NCBI RefSeq assembly: GCF_003208055.1
Contig: NZ_QJUE01000002.1
Coordinates: forward strand, 558,001-622,000
Source of the DNA: Prochlorococcus marinus XMU1408
GTDB lineage: Bacteria; Cyanobacteriota; Cyanobacteriia; PCC-6307; Cyanobiaceae
Length of the DNA: 64,000 nt
Direction: 5' to 3'
This document shows positions 3,504-9,624 of the stretch, one piece after another (position 1 is the first letter of the stretch; every line of letters begins with the position of its first letter). The notes below the pieces were generated by a model, which saw only the letters and a list, made by a program, of their open reading frames with translations, was not told the DNA's origin and did not search any database. A program made the translations under genes and the position numbers.

Positions 3504-4277
3504 ATGTTTAATAATGATATTTTTTCTCAAATTTTTTTTGGGATTGTATCTTTTGTTTCAAACTTTATTTCTGCATTGTCCGGTGGAGGTGCAGGCCTAA
3601 TTCAACTCCCAGCACTTTTACTTTTTGGCTTGCCTTTCTCTAAAGCTTTGGCTACTCATAAAGTTGCTAGTGTCGCTTTGGGCGTAGGAGCTTCAATACC
3701 ACATCTTAAGCAAGGTAATTTACAACGAAAATATGCCCTATTGATTTTGATATCTGGAATACCAGGAGTTTTGAGTGGGGCATATATAGCTTCAATTATA
3801 CCTAGTAATCTTTCAACTTCATTATTAGGTTTTTTGACTTTATTTATTAGTTTTTACTCAGTAAATAATAAAAAACTTGGTAATTCTAACTCAAGCACAT
3901 CAAATTATAAGTTAAGAATAATAATTGGTTCTTTGGGACTTTTTGTGATTGGTTTTTTAAATGGATATCTTTCTTCTGGTACTGGATTATTTGTTACGAT
4001 TTGGATGATAACTATATTTAATCTATCTTTTACTGTCGCTGTAGCCTATACCTTGATTTTTGTAGGAATTTTTTGGAATGGCGTAGGCGCTCTCTCTTTG
4101 GGATTGAGAGGCAATATTATTTGGAATTATATTCCTATTCTGATTTTAGGTTCTCTTGTTGGAGGCTACTTTGGAGCTTATTTCTCAATAGTTAAAGGAT
4201 CTAAATTTGTTAAATTATTTTTTGAAATAATCACTTTTTCTGTTGGAATTTCGTTACTTATAAAAGCTTTTTTATGA
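3504..4277 (+). CDS. TauE/SafE-family sulfite/anion exporter-like permease
   Basis: 257 residues with about eight hydrophobic segments. The N-terminal FVSNFISALSGGGAGLIQLP followed by ALATHKVASVALGVGA is the first-repeat signature of the TauE/SafE (DUF81) family: a glycine-rich reentrant motif, then a T-(H/N)-K loop. The second repeat (FLNGYLSSGTGLFVTIWMI) has the same layout. Members export or import sulfite, sulfoacetate or related anions across the plasma membrane. The substrate here is unknown. It lies between a small gene and gpgS, which points leftward, with a 12 bp convergent spacer, so it is unlikely to belong functionally to the glucosylglycerate genes. Confidence 0.8.
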   Translation: MFNNDIFSQIFFGIVSFVSNFISALSGGGAGLIQLPALLLFGLPFSKALATHKVASVALGVGASIPHLKQGNLQRKYALLILISGIPGVLSGAYIASIIPSNLSTSLLGFLTLFISFYSVNNKKLGNSNSSTSNYKLRIIIGSLGLFVIGFLNGYLSSGTGLFVTIWMITIFNLSFTVAVAYTLIFVGIFWNGVGALSLGLRGNIIWNYIPILILGSLVGGYFGAYFSIVKGSKFVKLFFEIITFSVGISLLIKAFL

Positions 4278-4289
4278 TTATTTAAATGT

Positions 4290-5477
4290 TTATAAGCCTC
4301 CAGCTTTTTCTAAATCATCTTGTAATTTACTCTCACAATCTAAAACCCTTGCCCAACATGGTAATTGTTGTTTTACAGGTGATTCGAGGAATTTATTAAT
4401 TGCAGGTCTTAAAAGTTTTCCAAATGTATGTACAGCTAGTTCTTCTTTATGTCTACTATATGGCAGTTGATTAACTGAGGAATCTAAACTGAATTGCTTT
4501 ACTCTGTCTTCTCCCGCTCTTCTATATAAAACTTCTAAATTTGCTAATTGAGAACTAGTAAGTGTCTTTGCTTCATGTTCCATTAACCCTCTCAAAACAC
4601 TTGAAAGAATTTCTGTAGACATTTTTTGTAATCCCTCAGTAGCTTTAGAACCTATTTCTTTATGTTTGTGGTCAAAAATCCCTAAATCCACCTGAGCGAT
4701 TCTTGATATTCTTACATTTTTATATACTTCTGATAGTAACCCTATTTCTAAGCCCCAATCACATGGGATTCTTAAATTCATTGCTAAGTCAGTAGTAAAA
4801 GCAAACTCTCCTGCTAATGGATATCTAAAAGACTGTAAATATTGGAGGAAGGGCACATTTCCTATCAATTGTTCCAAGCTAGAAAGTAATGGTCCTACAA
4901 ATAGCCTTGTTGCTCTGCCTTGAAGTGCATTTGTCTCAAGTGATAAACGGCTATAAAAGGCTTTTACATATGAAATCCCATTTGATTTTTCGAGCAAAGG
5001 ACCCAGCATCCTTGATGGATAATTTGAGTTGAATGTTCTTATATCAGCATCAAACAATGCTACAACTTCAGAGTTTTTAGTAGCTACACCGACACCTTGC
5101 CAGACAGCCCATCCTTTTCCAGGAACACCTAATAGGTCTAGTCCGTTTTTTTCTTGATCTTTTAGTAATTCAATTACTTTTGGACTATTAGTCCATTGGA
5201 CGTGGACTGGGAAGGGCATTTCTTTAAAGAAATGCCTAGCCTTCAATACATCATCATGATTACTGGCTGAGAGGGCTATTACTAATTGATTTAAATTTTT
5301 TAATTCTTTTAAAGTATTTTTAATAATCTTTAAAGCTGGCCTATTGAATTCATCGAATAAGCAAGGAATAAGTATTGAAGTGGGTCGCTTTAGGAGGTCT
5401 TTATTTAATTGAGATACTGGATCTTTTGCTAATCCGTACTCATGAATAGTTGTGATTAAACCTTGCTGAAAGTCCAT
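4290..5477 (-). CDS. gpgS: glucosyl-3-phosphoglycerate synthase (GT81)
   Basis: 395 residues. GpgS transfers glucose from an NDP-glucose to 3-phosphoglycerate, giving glucosyl-3-phosphoglycerate, the first step to the compatible solute glucosylglycerate. Visible signs are the GT-A fold start (TSILIPCLFDEFNRPALK, about 33-50), a VPGKGWAVWQG loop (118-128), the metal/NDP-binding ALFDADIRTFN (140-150, DAD at 143-145) and the C-terminal LGIFDHKHKEIG segment. Full length for the family. It is divergent from the phosphorylase-phosphatase-kinase operon, whose nearest start is only 12 bases away. Mannosyl-3-phosphoglycerate synthase is the main alternative, but the marine cyanobacterial context and the GT81-like motifs favour GpgS. 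Confidence 0.88.
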   Translation of the reverse strand: MDFQQGLITTIHEYGLAKDPVSQLNKDLLKRPTSILIPCLFDEFNRPALKIIKNTLKELKNLNQLVIALSASNHDDVLKARHFFKEMPFPVHVQWTNSPKVIELLKDQEKNGLDLLGVPGKGWAVWQGVGVATKNSEVVALFDADIRTFNSNYPSRMLGPLLEKSNGISYVKAFYSRLSLETNALQGRATRLFVGPLLSSLEQLIGNVPFLQYLQSFRYPLAGEFAFTTDLAMNLRIPCDWGLEIGLLSEVYKNVRISRIAQVDLGIFDHKHKEIGSKATEGLQKMSTEILSSVLRGLMEHEAKTLTSSQLANLEVLYRRAGEDRVKQFSLDSSVNQLPYSRHKEELAVHTFGKLLRPAINKFLESPVKQQLPCWARVLDCESKLQDDLEKAGGL

Positions 5478-5488
5478 TCAAAAATAAA

Positions 5489-7300
5489 GTGCTACAGATT
5501 CAAGGTGAGAGCTACGATGATGTAGAGAAGATTGTTTTCCTTTTAAGAGTGTCTGAGTTGGATAGTAAATTAAAAGAGCTGAGACTGTCTCTCAGAGAAA
5601 TTTATCCTGATCACTCTGAACAAGAAATCAATTCAGTGTGGTCTCAATTGTTGCAGATTCTCGATCCATATTATGTTAATCATGACAGTAATGATGTAGA
5701 AAACAAAACGATTTGGGATTCTTCTAGTGTTGTTTTGATTACTTATCCTGATTCAATTTATAGGAAAGGGGAATCAACTTTAAAAACATTAGCTGAATTC
5801 GTTAGGGACCGATTGAATGGACTTTCCTCCGTGATACATGTTTTACCATTCTTACCTTCTACAAGTGATGGGGGGTTCGCTGTATCTGATCACGAAAATA
5901 TAGATGAAACTTTTGGTGATTGGAATGATTTAAAGAATCTGTCAAGTAATAAGAAAATAATGGCAGATCTTGTTTTAAATCATGTCTCATCTTCTCACCC
6001 TTGGGTTCATCAATTTATCAAATCAAATGAACCTGGTTCGGAATATATTGTTTCCCCGTCTCAAACAGATATTTGGGAAGAAGTTATTAGACCTAGAAAT
6101 TCATCACTCTTCACTAATATTAAAACTAATAAAGGTTTTCAAAAGGTATGGACAACATTTGGCCCTGATCAAATTGATGTTGATTGGAGAAATCCCCATA
6201 TCTTTTTAGAATTTTTGAAATTATTGGTTAGATATATTAATAATGGAGCTGAATGGATAAGACTTGATGCAATTGCTTTTATTTGGAAGGAACCGTATAC
6301 AACTTGTTTACATTTAGACCCTGTCCATTTAATCGTTAAATTGTTAAATAAATGCTTAAAGATTATTAAACCATCGGCTGTATTAATAACAGAAACAAAT
6401 GTTCCTGAGGAGGAAAATCTTTCTTATTTAATTGACGGAAATGAGGCTAATCTAGCCTACAATTTCACCCTGCCTCCTCTGTTATTGGAAGCAATTTATA
6501 CTGGTAAAACTGATTTATTAAATAATTGGTTATCTAATTGGAATGAGTTGCCAACTTCTACATCTTTACTCAATTTCACTTCTTCACATGATGGTATTGG
6601 TCTAAGAGCTTTGGAGGGGATTATGGATGATACGAGAATGCATGACCTCTTGGTCGAATCAGAGAAACGGGGGGGATTAGTTAGTCATAGACGTTTGTCA
6701 AGTGGACAAGATCAACCATATGAATTAAACATTAGTTGGTGGAGTGCAATGTCAAATAGCGGATCAGATTTTACCTTCTTACAATTTGAACGTTTCTTGC
6801 TCAGTCAGGTTTTAACATTATCTTTAAAAGGAGTACCAGCTTTTTATCTTCCATCAATATTAGCTTCGCCTAATGATTTGGATACTTTTAGGAAGACTGG
6901 ACAAAGAAGAGATTTAAATCGAGAGAAATTTGAAGCTAACAAATTACTTGAGCGACTTAAGAACTTTGATTCTCCGGCAAGTAAAAATATTTCATACCTC
7001 AGCCACATTATTAAAGTCCGATCAAGGCTATGTGCATTCCATCCTGAGGCGTATATGAATTGTATCTCAACAAATATTGATAATTGTGTAGTTATTCAAC
7101 GAGGATTAGATGAAAATAGAGTATATGTAATTTGTAATATGTCTGACAAAAATCTATGTTTTCCAATCTTAAATGAAATAGATTTATTTAAATCAAGTTC
7201 TAAAAAGCGTTTAATTGATAACATATCCGGCTCTTATTTAAACTGTAATTCTTTTGACCTTAATCCCTATCAAGTAGTCTGGATCTCATTAACAGATTAG
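5489..7300 (+). CDS. GH13 sucrose-phosphorylase-family enzyme, probable glucosylglycerate phosphorylase
   Basis: 603 residues (from GTG 5489) of the GH13 subfamily 18 alpha-amylase fold. Motifs: DLVLNH (160-165), the nucleophile region WIRLDAIAFIW with Asp about 260, the acid/base LITETNVP with Glu about 302, and the stabiliser SSHDG with Asp about 368. The WTTFGPDQIDVDW block (221-233) is typical of this phosphorylase group. Annotation pipelines would call it sucrose phosphorylase. Its operon with gpgP and glycerate kinase, opposite gpgS, suggests instead glucosylglycerate + Pi to glucose-1-phosphate + glycerate. GTG 5549 or TTG 5558 are alternative starts that would leave more room for promoters. 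Specificity is inferred, not read from sequence. Confidence 0.8.
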   Translation: MLQIQGESYDDVEKIVFLLRVSELDSKLKELRLSLREIYPDHSEQEINSVWSQLLQILDPYYVNHDSNDVENKTIWDSSSVVLITYPDSIYRKGESTLKTLAEFVRDRLNGLSSVIHVLPFLPSTSDGGFAVSDHENIDETFGDWNDLKNLSSNKKIMADLVLNHVSSSHPWVHQFIKSNEPGSEYIVSPSQTDIWEEVIRPRNSSLFTNIKTNKGFQKVWTTFGPDQIDVDWRNPHIFLEFLKLLVRYINNGAEWIRLDAIAFIWKEPYTTCLHLDPVHLIVKLLNKCLKIIKPSAVLITETNVPEEENLSYLIDGNEANLAYNFTLPPLLLEAIYTGKTDLLNNWLSNWNELPTSTSLLNFTSSHDGIGLRALEGIMDDTRMHDLLVESEKRGGLVSHRRLSSGQDQPYELNISWWSAMSNSGSDFTFLQFERFLLSQVLTLSLKGVPAFYLPSILASPNDLDTFRKTGQRRDLNREKFEANKLLERLKNFDSPASKNISYLSHIIKVRSRLCAFHPEAYMNCISTNIDNCVVIQRGLDENRVYVICNMSDKNLCFPILNEIDLFKSSSKKRLIDNISGSYLNCNSFDLNPYQVVWISLTD

Positions 7301-7304
7301 TCTT

Positions 7305-8105
7305 ATGTCAAATAATTCAAAATTATGGATAGTTACAGATCTTGATGGGACATTAATGGATGAGAATTATGATATTTCTCCTGCAAGAAATACTTTAAAC
7401 TTATTGAGAGAGTTAGCTATACCAGTAATACCATGTACAAGTAAAACAGCTTCTGAAGTAAGATTTTTCCGAAATGAGAATAGATTATTGGATCCTTTCA
7501 TTGTTGAAAATGGAGCTGCAGTCTACGGTTGTCATGAGAATAATACTTCCGAATGGGAATTGCTATTAGGCAAAAGTTATAAAGAATTGAGAATTATTTT
7601 GATGAACATATCAGAAAAAGTTAACTACCATCTAACTCCTTTGAACGACTTAAATAATAATCAGATATTTGAACTTACTGGTTTATCAGATCAAGGAATT
7701 AAACGAGCGTTAGATAGGCAATGGAGTGTTCCATTCTTAAATCCTCCGGATGAGATCTTTGAAAAAGTTAAGCTTATTTGTGAGTCTTATGATGTGCATG
7801 TTTTTAAAGGAAATCGAATGAGTCATCTTCTTTCTAACGAGAGTCATAAAGGTAAGGCTGTTAATAAGTTAAAGTTATATCTAAATAATAAGGATGTAAA
7901 AGTTGTAGCACTTGGGGATTCTCAAAATGATCTTCCGTTACTTGAGTATGCTGATATATCAATTGTTGTACCTGGTATAAATGGACCAAATAAGTATTTA
8001 CAGAATGGTATTGATAAAGGATCCTTTAGATTAGCCAATGCCCCTCATGCCCAGGGTTGGTCAAATAGTGTTGAAGATATTATTAATAACATTAATGATT
8101 TATAA
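7305..8105 (+). CDS. gpgP: glucosyl-3-phosphoglycerate phosphatase (HAD, MpgP type)
   Basis: 266 residues. The HAD motif I is TDLDGTL (11-17, nucleophile Asp12 and Asp14), motif II lies in PCTSKTASEV (43-52), Lys in HKGKA (181-185), and motif IV is LGDSQNDLPLL (203-213). The subfamily is HAD-IIB, mannosyl/glucosyl-3-phosphoglycerate phosphatase type. It removes the phosphate from glucosyl-3-phosphoglycerate to give glucosylglycerate. It starts 4 bases after the phosphorylase stop and its own stop overlaps the next start by one base (TAATG), so the three genes are surely co-transcribed and probably translationally coupled. The synthase gpgS lies on the opposite strand beyond the phosphorylase. 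Confidence 0.87.
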   Translation: MSNNSKLWIVTDLDGTLMDENYDISPARNTLNLLRELAIPVIPCTSKTASEVRFFRNENRLLDPFIVENGAAVYGCHENNTSEWELLLGKSYKELRIILMNISEKVNYHLTPLNDLNNNQIFELTGLSDQGIKRALDRQWSVPFLNPPDEIFEKVKLICESYDVHVFKGNRMSHLLSNESHKGKAVNKLKLYLNNKDVKVVALGDSQNDLPLLEYADISIVVPGINGPNKYLQNGIDKGSFRLANAPHAQGWSNSVEDIINNINDL

Positions 8106-9115
8106 TGCTATATAAAAATGATTTACACGAATTCAATAATATTTTCCCTAGAGATATAAGTGATGAATTCCTTTTCTCTTTTGATGAATACTGTCTATTT
8201 CTTCAAGCCTTATCTATAAACCCATTAACTTTCCTAAGTACATGGTCTGATATTAACAGACAAGATATTATTTCTAAATATTGGAAGGAAAATACAAAAA
8301 TAGATTGGAAATGGTCATTATCATTTCCATTGTTTTCTGTTTTGGAAAAATATATTGAGAATTTCACTAATCCAATAATAATAGGTTTTTCTGGTCTACC
8401 TGGATCTGGTAAATCGACTCTAGGCTTTTGGATTGATCAGGTCGCTAAAGATTTAAGTTTAGACATCAATGTAATATCTTTAGATGATTACTATTTACCT
8501 GGAAAAGAAATGGATATTGCTATGCAAGGCAATCCATGGAATGTTCCTAGGGGCTTTCCGGGAAGCCACTCTATTGATTTATTGAATCAATCATTAGATA
8601 CTTTTTCCAAAACTGGGTTTTTGAAGTCTCCAGTTTTTGATAAATCTTTGAGAGAAGGTAAAGGTGATAGATCAGGATGGTGTGAACTAAGACCTAAAGT
8701 TTTGATTTTGGAAGGATGGTTTGTAGGTTGTGAGCCAATATCAAATCTAAGTGAAATTGATTATATATTGGAAGACAAATTTAATCTATCTCTTAATAAT
8801 GTAGAAAAGCAGTTTCGTATTTCTATTCAAGAATCTCTAATTAGATATAGTCATATATGGACAAAATTTGATAAGATCTGGCATTTAAAATCTTCAAATT
8901 TTAATAATACAATTCTTTGGAAAACTCAGCAGGAACAGGAGATGATTAAATTAAAAGGATCTGGTCTAAAAGATAATAGATTAACTGATTTTATTCGTAT
9001 GATACAAGCATCTATTCCACAAGAAACCTTATCCTGCATTAAGGCTGATACTAGAATTGAAATTAATCAGGATCGTAGGATTGAAAAACTTTTTAGTAAT
9101 AAATATCAATTCTAA
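8105..9115 (+). CDS. D-glycerate 3-kinase (plant/cyanobacterial GLYK type)
   Basis: 336 residues. The P-loop is GFSGLPGSGKSTLGFWID (about 94-111), followed by ISLDDYYLPGKEM, a GNPWNVPRGFPGSHS block, and LILEGWFVGCEP (Walker B-like). This pattern is that of the P-loop glycerate kinases of plants and cyanobacteria, which make 3-phosphoglycerate in the last step of photorespiration. Here it sits in an operon with a glucosylglycerate phosphorylase candidate and gpgP, so it may also recycle glycerate released from glucosylglycerate. If it is the only glycerate kinase in the genome, it must serve both pathways. The N-terminal 90 residues are lineage-variable. Its start overlaps the gpgP stop. Confidence 0.87.
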   Translation: MLYKNDLHEFNNIFPRDISDEFLFSFDEYCLFLQALSINPLTFLSTWSDINRQDIISKYWKENTKIDWKWSLSFPLFSVLEKYIENFTNPIIIGFSGLPGSGKSTLGFWIDQVAKDLSLDINVISLDDYYLPGKEMDIAMQGNPWNVPRGFPGSHSIDLLNQSLDTFSKTGFLKSPVFDKSLREGKGDRSGWCELRPKVLILEGWFVGCEPISNLSEIDYILEDKFNLSLNNVEKQFRISIQESLIRYSHIWTKFDKIWHLKSSNFNNTILWKTQQEQEMIKLKGSGLKDNRLTDFIRMIQASIPQETLSCIKADTRIEINQDRRIEKLFSNKYQF

Positions 9116-9246: not shown

Positions 9247-9624
9247 ATGACTTCCTATGTTTACTTAGTTCAAAATGGTGATTTATTCAATATTGGTGTT
9301 TCAAATAATCTTGAGCGCTCTCGAATTAGTTTAAGACCAGGTGAATTGATTGCTTTTTCAATAACAGATAAGCCTGAAGTACTTATTAATAATCTAAGGA
9401 AAATATATGTTGATAATAGATTGCCAGGATCTGATTATTATCGATTAGCTAATTCGCAAGTTAAGGAATGTCGAGCATTATTAGAGGGAGATGGATCAAA
9501 TAACTATTTCCAACCTTTTTTTAGGGGTCCAAGTTTATTTTTATTATTTATTTCTTCTTGGTTCTTAATTACTTATATAATTATTCAATTTGCTGTCAAT
9601 CCTATTCTCTCCAAGTTTAGCTAA
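9247..9624 (+). CDS. GIY-YIG-like (T5orf172-type) protein with C-terminal membrane anchor
   Basis: 125 residues. The N-terminal 80 residues resemble the GIY-YIG/T5orf172 fold: YVYLVQNGDLFNIGVSNN supplies the YVY and NIG halves of the two-strand motif, followed by LERSRIS with a possible catalytic Arg. Later, GSDYYRLANSQVKEC resembles the helix that in this group carries the ...E-W/F-F region. The last 35 residues form one hydrophobic helix (SLFLLFISSWFLITYIIIQF), predicting a tail anchor. A nuclease activity is uncertain because the conserved Glu is not clear. It stands alone, with AT-rich spacers on both sides. Confidence 0.6.
   Translation: MTSYVYLVQNGDLFNIGVSNNLERSRISLRPGELIAFSITDKPEVLINNLRKIYVDNRLPGSDYYRLANSQVKECRALLEGDGSNNYFQPFFRGPSLFLLFISSWFLITYIIIQFAVNPILSKFS

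What the first reader, a model, noticed from the sequence alone, without database searches (positions are those of the whole stretch)
4290..9115. Candidate closed glucosylglycerate synthesis and salvage loop
Four genes lie together: gpgS (leftward), and an operon of GH13_18 phosphorylase, gpgP and D-glycerate 3-kinase with gaps of 4 and -1 bases. GpgS and GpgP make glucosylglycerate from NDP-glucose and 3-phosphoglycerate. If the GH13 enzyme is a glucosylglycerate phosphorylase (EC 2.4.1.352 activity exists in this subfamily), it would give glucose-1-phosphate and glycerate, and the kinase would return 3-phosphoglycerate. That gives a reversible osmolyte or carbon store without nitrogen. Coupling synthesis and breakdown in one operon is notable. 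The usual annotation, sucrose phosphorylase, would miss this.
Basis: partly seen in the sequence, partly recalled or inferred. Interest (0 to 1): 0.75.

Follow-up and report, generated by a model that had tools for sequence, protein, structure and literature searches.

The report
Known osmolyte make-and-recycle gene cluster
Four neighbouring genes in this marine cyanobacterium very probably make the nitrogen-free salt protectant glucosylglycerate and break it down again into reusable sugar phosphate and 3-phosphoglycerate, a pathway already described in a close relative.

Summary
gpgS (leftward) and GH13_18, gpgP and glycerate 3-kinase (GLYK, rightward) lie at 4290-9115 with the stated gaps; only the GH13_18 start is probably 5549, not 5489. 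The GH13_18 protein carries both published glucosylglycerate phosphorylase (GGaP) marks (TETN, and Glu in loop A), is 34% identical to E. coli YcjM, a characterised GGaP, and splits from sucrose phosphorylases in a tree. It is not new: Coe et al. 2024 (PMC11631117) show this loop and operon in Prochlorococcus NATL2A, and a 2020 review (PMC7178133) reports such gene company.

What I add is evolutionary. gpgS sits beside GGaP in 59 of 60 GGaP-bearing genomes of the family (the 60th has it on another contig). GLYK is joined only in the Prochlorococcus type (34 of 36; the other two clusters stop at contig ends) and in none of 24 other genomes. It appears to have moved in from another locus. Of 16 examined GLYK loci without intact GGaP, five keep other pieces of the cluster. 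The kinase outlives the osmolyte genes, so it probably has a second job, presumably photorespiration. No enzyme assay was possible.

The parts
4290..5477 (-). gpgS, glucosyl-3-phosphoglycerate synthase (395 aa)
   Evidence: NF040724 nearly full length 396 bits (below its cut-off), matches to solved GpgS; divergent neighbour of the GH13_18 gene in 80 of 80 named loci
5478..5548 (.). short divergent gap between gpgS and the GH13_18 gene (true start probably 5549); promoters must lie here or inside the coding ends
   Evidence: in-frame TAA at codon 19 or 5 of the annotated ORF in 11 of 13 close relatives, GTG at codon 21 in 13 of 13; no sigma-70-like match found in 5300-5700
5549..7300 (+). GH13_18 glycoside phosphorylase, predicted 2-O-alpha-glucosylglycerate phosphorylase (GGaP, EC 2.4.1.352); annotated ORF starts at 5489
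   Evidence: TETN at residues 301-304 and Glu412 (PYE) of the 603-aa ORF; aligned catalytic D260, E302, D368; 34% identity to YcjM; tree
7305..8105 (+). gpgP, glucosyl-3-phosphoglycerate phosphatase (HAD-IIB, MPGP family)
   Evidence: NF001217 424 bits over its 373-bit cut-off; solved MPGP relatives
8105..9115 (+). GLYK, plant-type D-glycerate 3-kinase; the only glycerate kinase found in this genome by three searches
   Evidence: matches solved GLYK 7xpc, 6ckg; single GLYK match in own genome; PF13660 and PF02595 not found
3504..4277 (+). TauE/SafE-family permease, convergent with gpgS; possibly the transporter that Coe et al. place next to the operon in NATL2A (my identification, not checked)
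   Evidence: PF01925 139 bits; found within 0.5 kb of gpgS in 9 of 80 named loci, a few of the 80 lacking enough upstream sequence to tell

Best explanation
A complete glucosylglycerate (GGA) turnover cluster. GpgS joins glucose from an NDP-sugar to 3-phosphoglycerate; GpgP removes the phosphate to give GGA, a nitrogen-free negatively charged compatible solute. The GH13_18 enzyme is a glucosylglycerate phosphorylase that splits GGA with phosphate into glucose-1-phosphate and D-glycerate, and GLYK phosphorylates the glycerate back to 3-phosphoglycerate. Run together the cycle wastes ATP. gpgS is transcribed apart from the other three genes, so its expression is the likely gate between accumulation and recycling. 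Shown here: gene identities by homology, specificity signature, linkage. Inferred: substrates, direction of flux, gating.
For: The review PMC7178133 gives (T/S)ETN and a loop-A Glu as the GGaP marks (passages); both are present in the window and in 140 of 140 related sequences extracted, while four sucrose phosphorylases (PDB 1r7a and three plasmid genes annotated as such) have PEIH, VEIH or IEVH and a Gln in loop A. 34% identity over 543 aa to E. coli YcjM, which that review names as a strict GGaP; YcjM and the cyanobacterial proteins stand apart from the four sucrose phosphorylases at 100/100 support. gpgS within 300 bp of the gene in 59 of 60 genomes. PMC11631117 section 17 (read) and passages place these genes in one operon in NATL2A and report synthesis transcripts down and GGA-recycling transcripts up in dark-tolerant cells.
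Against: No activity data for this protein or, in the passages I read, for any cyanobacterial GGaP. YcjM is a long branch, and no sucrose-phosphate or glucosylglycerol phosphorylase was in the tree (only their motifs, taken from the review, were compared). GpgS falls below its model's cut-off. Two papers name what is probably the same gene gmgG: a glucosyl(mannosyl)glycerate glucosidase (PMC9361551) and part of a gpgS-gmgG-gpgG cluster (PMC7522525). PMC9606707 (passages) assigns gpgP in NATL1A and MED4 to loci whose tags lie far from gpgS (NATL1_05721 and NATL1_09131; PMM0515 and PMM0962), which does not fit the linkage found here unless another phosphatase was named there; not resolved.
Confidence: 0.88

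Rival explanations
1. The GH13_18 enzyme is a sucrose (or sucrose-6F-phosphate) phosphorylase that breaks down the other osmolyte, sucrose, and sits by chance beside the GGA genes.
For: GH13_18-like sequence; best NCBIfam model is sucrose_gtfA; the nearest solved chains by sequence are labelled sucrose phosphorylase.
Against: The sucrose_gtfA score is below its cut-off. The SP motif N(L/V)D(I/L/V)YQ and the SPP motifs GFDVHQ or KXXYYQ are absent; TETN or SETN and a loop-A Glu are present in 140 of 140. gpgS beside the gene in 59 of 60 genomes.
Confidence: 0.04
2. The phosphorylase mainly runs in the synthetic direction: it makes GGA from glucose-1-phosphate (glycogen) and photorespiratory glycerate, giving a second route to the osmolyte rather than salvage.
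For: The reaction is reversible (PMC11009771, passages). One genome, G085, keeps gpgS and gpgP but only a relic of GGaP, so the two routes are separable.
Against: GLYK in the same operon would drain glycerate, and high phosphate favours breakdown (inference). All 60 family genomes with GGaP also have gpgS, as expected for salvage. NATL2A expression: recycling up while synthesis is down, as those authors read it.
Confidence: 0.08

Closest known systems
Glucosylglycerate metabolism operon of Prochlorococcus NATL2A (Coe et al. 2024, PMC11631117; passages and section 17 read)
   Same: GGA made via glucosyl 3-phosphoglycerate and recycled to glucose-1-phosphate and 3-phosphoglycerate by genes co-located in one operon, with a transporter gene immediately adjacent
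   Different: Nothing in kind; the window is another Prochlorococcus genome
Strict glucosylglycerate phosphorylases of Meiothermus silvanus, Spirochaeta thermophila and E. coli YcjM (EC 2.4.1.352; Franceus et al. 2017, not held; reviewed in PMC7178133, passages)
   Same: (T/S)ETN motif and loop-A Glu; as a group often in the company of glycerate kinase, GpgS or GpgP genes
   Different: 34% identity to YcjM; in E. coli the gene sits with putative ABC transporter and kojibiose phosphorylase genes, with no gpgS annotated in the 20 kb fetched
gpgS-SYNW2435-gpgP of Synechococcus WH8102 (PMC2874817, passages)
   Same: the middle gene was noted in 2010 to share an operon with gpgP and perhaps act in the same pathway; I take it to be the same gene by position
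   Different: kinase not mentioned in the passages read; in Synechococcus-type genomes here it lies elsewhere
GGaP-like, GT and HAD gene group on a Qingshengfaniella alkalisoli plasmid (NZ_CP042265.1)
   Same: sugar phosphorylase 36% identical to the window's, with a GpgS-like (36%) and a GpgP-like (29%) gene beside it
   Different: galU follows; no glycerate kinase annotated in the stretch fetched

Membership tests
Glucosylglycerate phosphorylase (GGaP, GH13_18) | GH13 catalytic nucleophile, acid/base and third Asp conserved | tested here: met
   D260, E302, D368 align with those of B. adolescentis sucrose phosphorylase (assignment of the roles recalled)
Glucosylglycerate phosphorylase (GGaP, GH13_18) | (T/S)ETN at the tip of strand 5 | tested here: met
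   TETN 301-304; of 140 relatives 139 have TETN and 1 SETN; feature from PMC7178133
Glucosylglycerate phosphorylase (GGaP, GH13_18) | Glu in loop A where most other clades have Gln | tested here: met
   PYE, Glu412; 140 of 140
Glucosylglycerate phosphorylase (GGaP, GH13_18) | groups with a characterised GGaP rather than with SP | tested here: met
   split at 100/100 from four SPs with YcjM on its side; long branches flagged; no SPP or GGoP in the tree
Glucosylglycerate phosphorylase (GGaP, GH13_18) | phosphorolysis of GGA, none of sucrose | not testable with these tools
   needs an assay
Sucrose phosphorylase | N(L/V)D(I/L/V)YQ motif in loop A | tested here: not met
   window has QDQPYE; motif
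Sucrose-6F-phosphate phosphorylase | GFDVHQ or KXXYYQ in loop A | tested here: not met
   QDQPYE; motifs
Glucosylglycerol phosphorylase (GH13_18) | VGAIYQ in loop A | tested here: not met
   QDQPYE; motif
Uncharacterised myxobacterial GH13_18 clade | AETD instead of (T/S)ETN | tested here: not met
   TETN; motif. Its loop A also ends in PYE, so the ETN motif is the deciding one
GpgS | passes the NCBIfam equivalog cut-off | tested here: not met
   NF040724 396 of 700 bits, though matched over nearly its full length; also matches solved GpgS. I call it GpgS on homology, linkage and the literature on close relatives, not on this model
GpgP / MPGP-family phosphatase | passes the NCBIfam model | tested here: met
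   NF001217 424 of 373 bits, TIGR01486 289 of 165
Plant-type D-glycerate 3-kinase (GLYK) | homology to solved GLYK | tested here: met
   7xpc 1.1e-16, 6ckg 8.2e-16

The most novel reading that the evidence does not exclude
The photorespiratory glycerate 3-kinase was captured by the GGA cluster once, early in Prochlorococcus, so that one kinase now serves both photorespiration and osmolyte salvage. The GGA genes were then lost repeatedly while the kinase stayed at the scar. The operon would thus tie osmolyte turnover to photorespiratory carbon recovery.
Probability: 0.45. Interest if true: 0.45.

Novelty: already known. Interest (0 to 1): 0.25.

Why it matters
GGA is a main nitrogen-free osmolyte of Prochlorococcus according to passages in PMC9606707, PMC10654061 and PMC3686209, so its recycling route matters for carbon budgets and dark survival. 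The loop itself is published. Useful additions are a sequence argument that the middle gene, probably the gmgG 'glucosidase' of some papers, is a phosphorylase and conserves bond energy as glucose-1-phosphate, and the observation that the kinase is joined to the cluster only in Prochlorococcus-type genomes and outlives it.

Tried and rejected
Sucrose, sucrose-6F-phosphate and glucosylglycerol phosphorylase were considered and rejected on loop-A and ETN motifs. Chance neighbourhood was rejected by the surveys. A second glycerate kinase in the genome was sought with PF13660 and PF02595 and not found; the families rang in 4 and 5 of 14 control genomes. A sigma-70-like promoter scan of 5300-5700 found none, 1.5 expected in shuffles. 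The wish to date the kinase losses on a kinase tree was only partly met: 9 label changes, 3 forced by well-supported branches, deep forks unresolved, bootstrap not settled. Phage copies: 42 phage records matched; the organism and host names shown are not cyanophages, though 5 records give no host and only 10 were listed. The genome-contig scan returned only Prochlorococcus among the 80 kept, so M. silvanus and S. thermophila sequences were not obtained. A first statement of mine that relative G086 starts with ATG at codon 21 was wrong: the alignment tool prints GTG as M; one search shows GTG there.
Full report
Observation. The window lies in a 1.795-Mb genome. Its closest named relatives by this gene are Prochlorococcus records at 81-84% identity. 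The start of the GH13_18 ORF at 5489 is doubtful. Of 13 close relatives, 10 have an in-frame TAA at codon 19 and one at codon 5; two (L037, L038) have none inside the ORF; all 13 have GTG at codon 21. GTG at 5549, or a start slightly downstream, fits better and leaves about 71 bp for divergent control of gpgS and the rest.

Identity of the enzymes. GpgS: nearly full-length match to NF040724, below its cut-off, and matches to solved GpgS. GpgP: above the cut-off of NF001217, an MPGP-family model. Kinase: matches solved D-glycerate 3-kinases. GH13_18: the automatic name would lean to sucrose phosphorylase (sucrose_gtfA 184 bits, cut-off 334). The review PMC7178133 (passages) states that glucosylglycerate phosphorylases (GGaPs) are told apart by (T/S)ETN and a loop-A Glu. 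The window has TETN and PYE. All 140 related sequences extracted from loci in hand carry both (139 TETN, 1 SETN); this set includes the window's own copy and may hold the same species more than once, so the rows are not independent. B. adolescentis sucrose phosphorylase and three plasmid genes annotated as such have IEVH, PEIH or VEIH and a Gln. Identity to E. coli YcjM is 34% over 543 aa. In a 39-row tree (32 of the 140 relatives were used) the four sucrose phosphorylases are separated from YcjM plus all cyanobacterial rows at 100/100. The program flags YcjM and the deep branches as long, and no sucrose-phosphate or glucosylglycerol phosphorylase was included; those were compared by motif only.

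Neighbourhood. The three loci without the kinase, one of them also without gpgP, end 24, 252 and 843 bp after the phosphorylase gene. In 151 genomes drawn from the family, 60 have an orthologue (over 500 bits). gpgS lies within 300 bp in 59 of these 60; in the last it is on another contig. The kinase lies within 1 kb in 34 of 60. In the 24 other, mostly larger, Synechococcus-type genomes the best kinase match is never near: it is far away on the same contig in 13 and on another contig in 11. Some of those matches are weak, down to about 39 bits, and may not be true orthologues. In the 17 of those 24 clusters that I fetched, gpgP follows the phosphorylase gene in 17 of 17 and no kinase is in the stretch, one of them (L145) ending 173 bp after gpgP. 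Outside the family, 12 of the 40 phylum matches (292 genomes searched) lie in other families of the class. Three of these 12 have the same gpgS, phosphorylase, gpgP order, one has gpgS in tandem, and eight show none of the partners in the fetched stretch, two of these lying near contig ends. So the three-gene set looks old and the kinase a later addition.

Kinase without the loop. In the survey 76 genomes have a kinase match but no phosphorylase orthologue; many are larger or distant genomes. I examined the kinase loci of 15 of these 76, chosen from the more similar kinases, and a 16th in G015, where an intact cluster with a second kinase lies on another contig. Five of the 16 carry pieces of the cluster: L117 (ends of gpgS and gpgP), L118 (gpgS lacking its first third), L119 (gpgS and gpgP whole or nearly so, phosphorylase a short relic), L120 (gpgS fragments) and L127 (gpgP fragment). 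In the other 11 no cluster gene was found beside the kinase. One genome, G025, keeps the kinase in the neighbourhood seen in two Synechococcus-type genomes, and its kinase groups with one of them; the other 15 do not share that neighbourhood. The simplest account is one move of the kinase into the cluster followed by repeated loss of the GGA genes. The kinase tree is poorly resolved at depth (9 label changes, at least 3 forced by well-supported branches), the flanking genes of the kinase-only loci do not match those downstream of the cluster in named Prochlorococcus, and several genomes are incomplete, so the number of losses is open. The window's genome has one GLYK match and no PF13660 or PF02595 kinase. 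That photorespiration is the kinase's other job is established knowledge of plant-type GLYK (recalled), not tested here.

Mechanism. Reactions follow from the enzyme families: NDP-glucose + 3-phosphoglycerate to glucosyl-3-phosphoglycerate (GpgS), to GGA (GpgP), to glucose-1-phosphate + D-glycerate with phosphate (GGaP), to 3-phosphoglycerate with ATP (GLYK). The full cycle costs ATP, so both halves should not run together. gpgS is on the other strand and can be controlled alone. [quoted passage not shown]

What is already in print. PMC11631117 (passages and section 17) shows a glucosylglycerate metabolism operon in NATL2A with recycling to glucose-1-phosphate and 3-phosphoglycerate and a transporter next door. 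PMC7178133 (passages) says GGaPs are frequently accompanied by genes for glycerate kinase, GpgS or GpgP. PMC2874817 (passages) noted in 2010 that SYNW2435 shares an operon with gpgP. PMC7522525 (one passage) names a gpgS-gmgG-gpgG cluster, and PMC9361551 (one passage) calls gmgG a glucosidase; by position gmgG is probably this gene, which I could not confirm. Against the linkage, PMC9606707 (passages) lists gpgP and gpgS of NATL1A and MED4 under locus tags that lie far apart; either another phosphatase was named gpgP there or those strains differ, and I did not resolve it. My searches for print on the kinase link (gpgS, cyanobacteria and glycerate kinase, 0 papers; glucosylglycerate and glycerate kinase, 2 papers, of which I saw passages of PMC7178133 and only the listing of the other) gave no account of kinase capture or retention, but Franceus 2017 is not held, and Klahn 2010 and Scanlan 2009 were seen only as citations.

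Transporter. TauE/SafE was found within 0.5 kb of gpgS in 9 of 80 named loci, eight of them the window's closest relatives, and within the fetched flank of up to 8 kb in 18 of 80. As a dedicated GGA carrier it is therefore weakly supported outside this group.

Verdict. Real, correctly read, and already known.

Noticed in passing
window 3504-4277: TauE/SafE permease convergent with gpgS; found within 0.5 kb of gpgS in 9 of 80 named loci, so its role as a GGA carrier is open.
   Followed up: partly
L119 (G085:C8:36500-46500): gpgS, gpgP and kinase whole or nearly so but the phosphorylase reduced to a relic with stops: a lineage that seems to make GGA without this way of breaking it down.
   Followed up: partly
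L120 and L121 (G015, contigs C8 and C2): A 1.4-Mb, 77%-complete genome holds two kinases, one beside gpgS fragments and one in an intact cluster on another contig: regain by gene transfer, or a mixed assembly.
   Followed up: no
L122 and L123 (G027): gpgS on a different contig from the phosphorylase, with TauE directly upstream of the phosphorylase instead.
   Followed up: no
L157 (Qingshengfaniella alkalisoli plasmid NZ_CP042265.1): A proteobacterial plasmid carries a phosphorylase, GpgS-like, GpgP-like and galU group, perhaps an independent assembly of the same pathway.
   Followed up: partly
phage records OR848156.1, OR846735.1 and others: Unannotated 'Listeria phage' records carry GGaP-like stretches at 33-36% identity (the 10 listed); probably bacterial DNA in phage-labelled contigs.
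   Followed up: no
window 9247-9624: Small conserved protein downstream of the kinase, also downstream in several Prochlorococcus loci (L037, L043, L048, L058, L061, L115, L122), function unknown.
   Followed up: no
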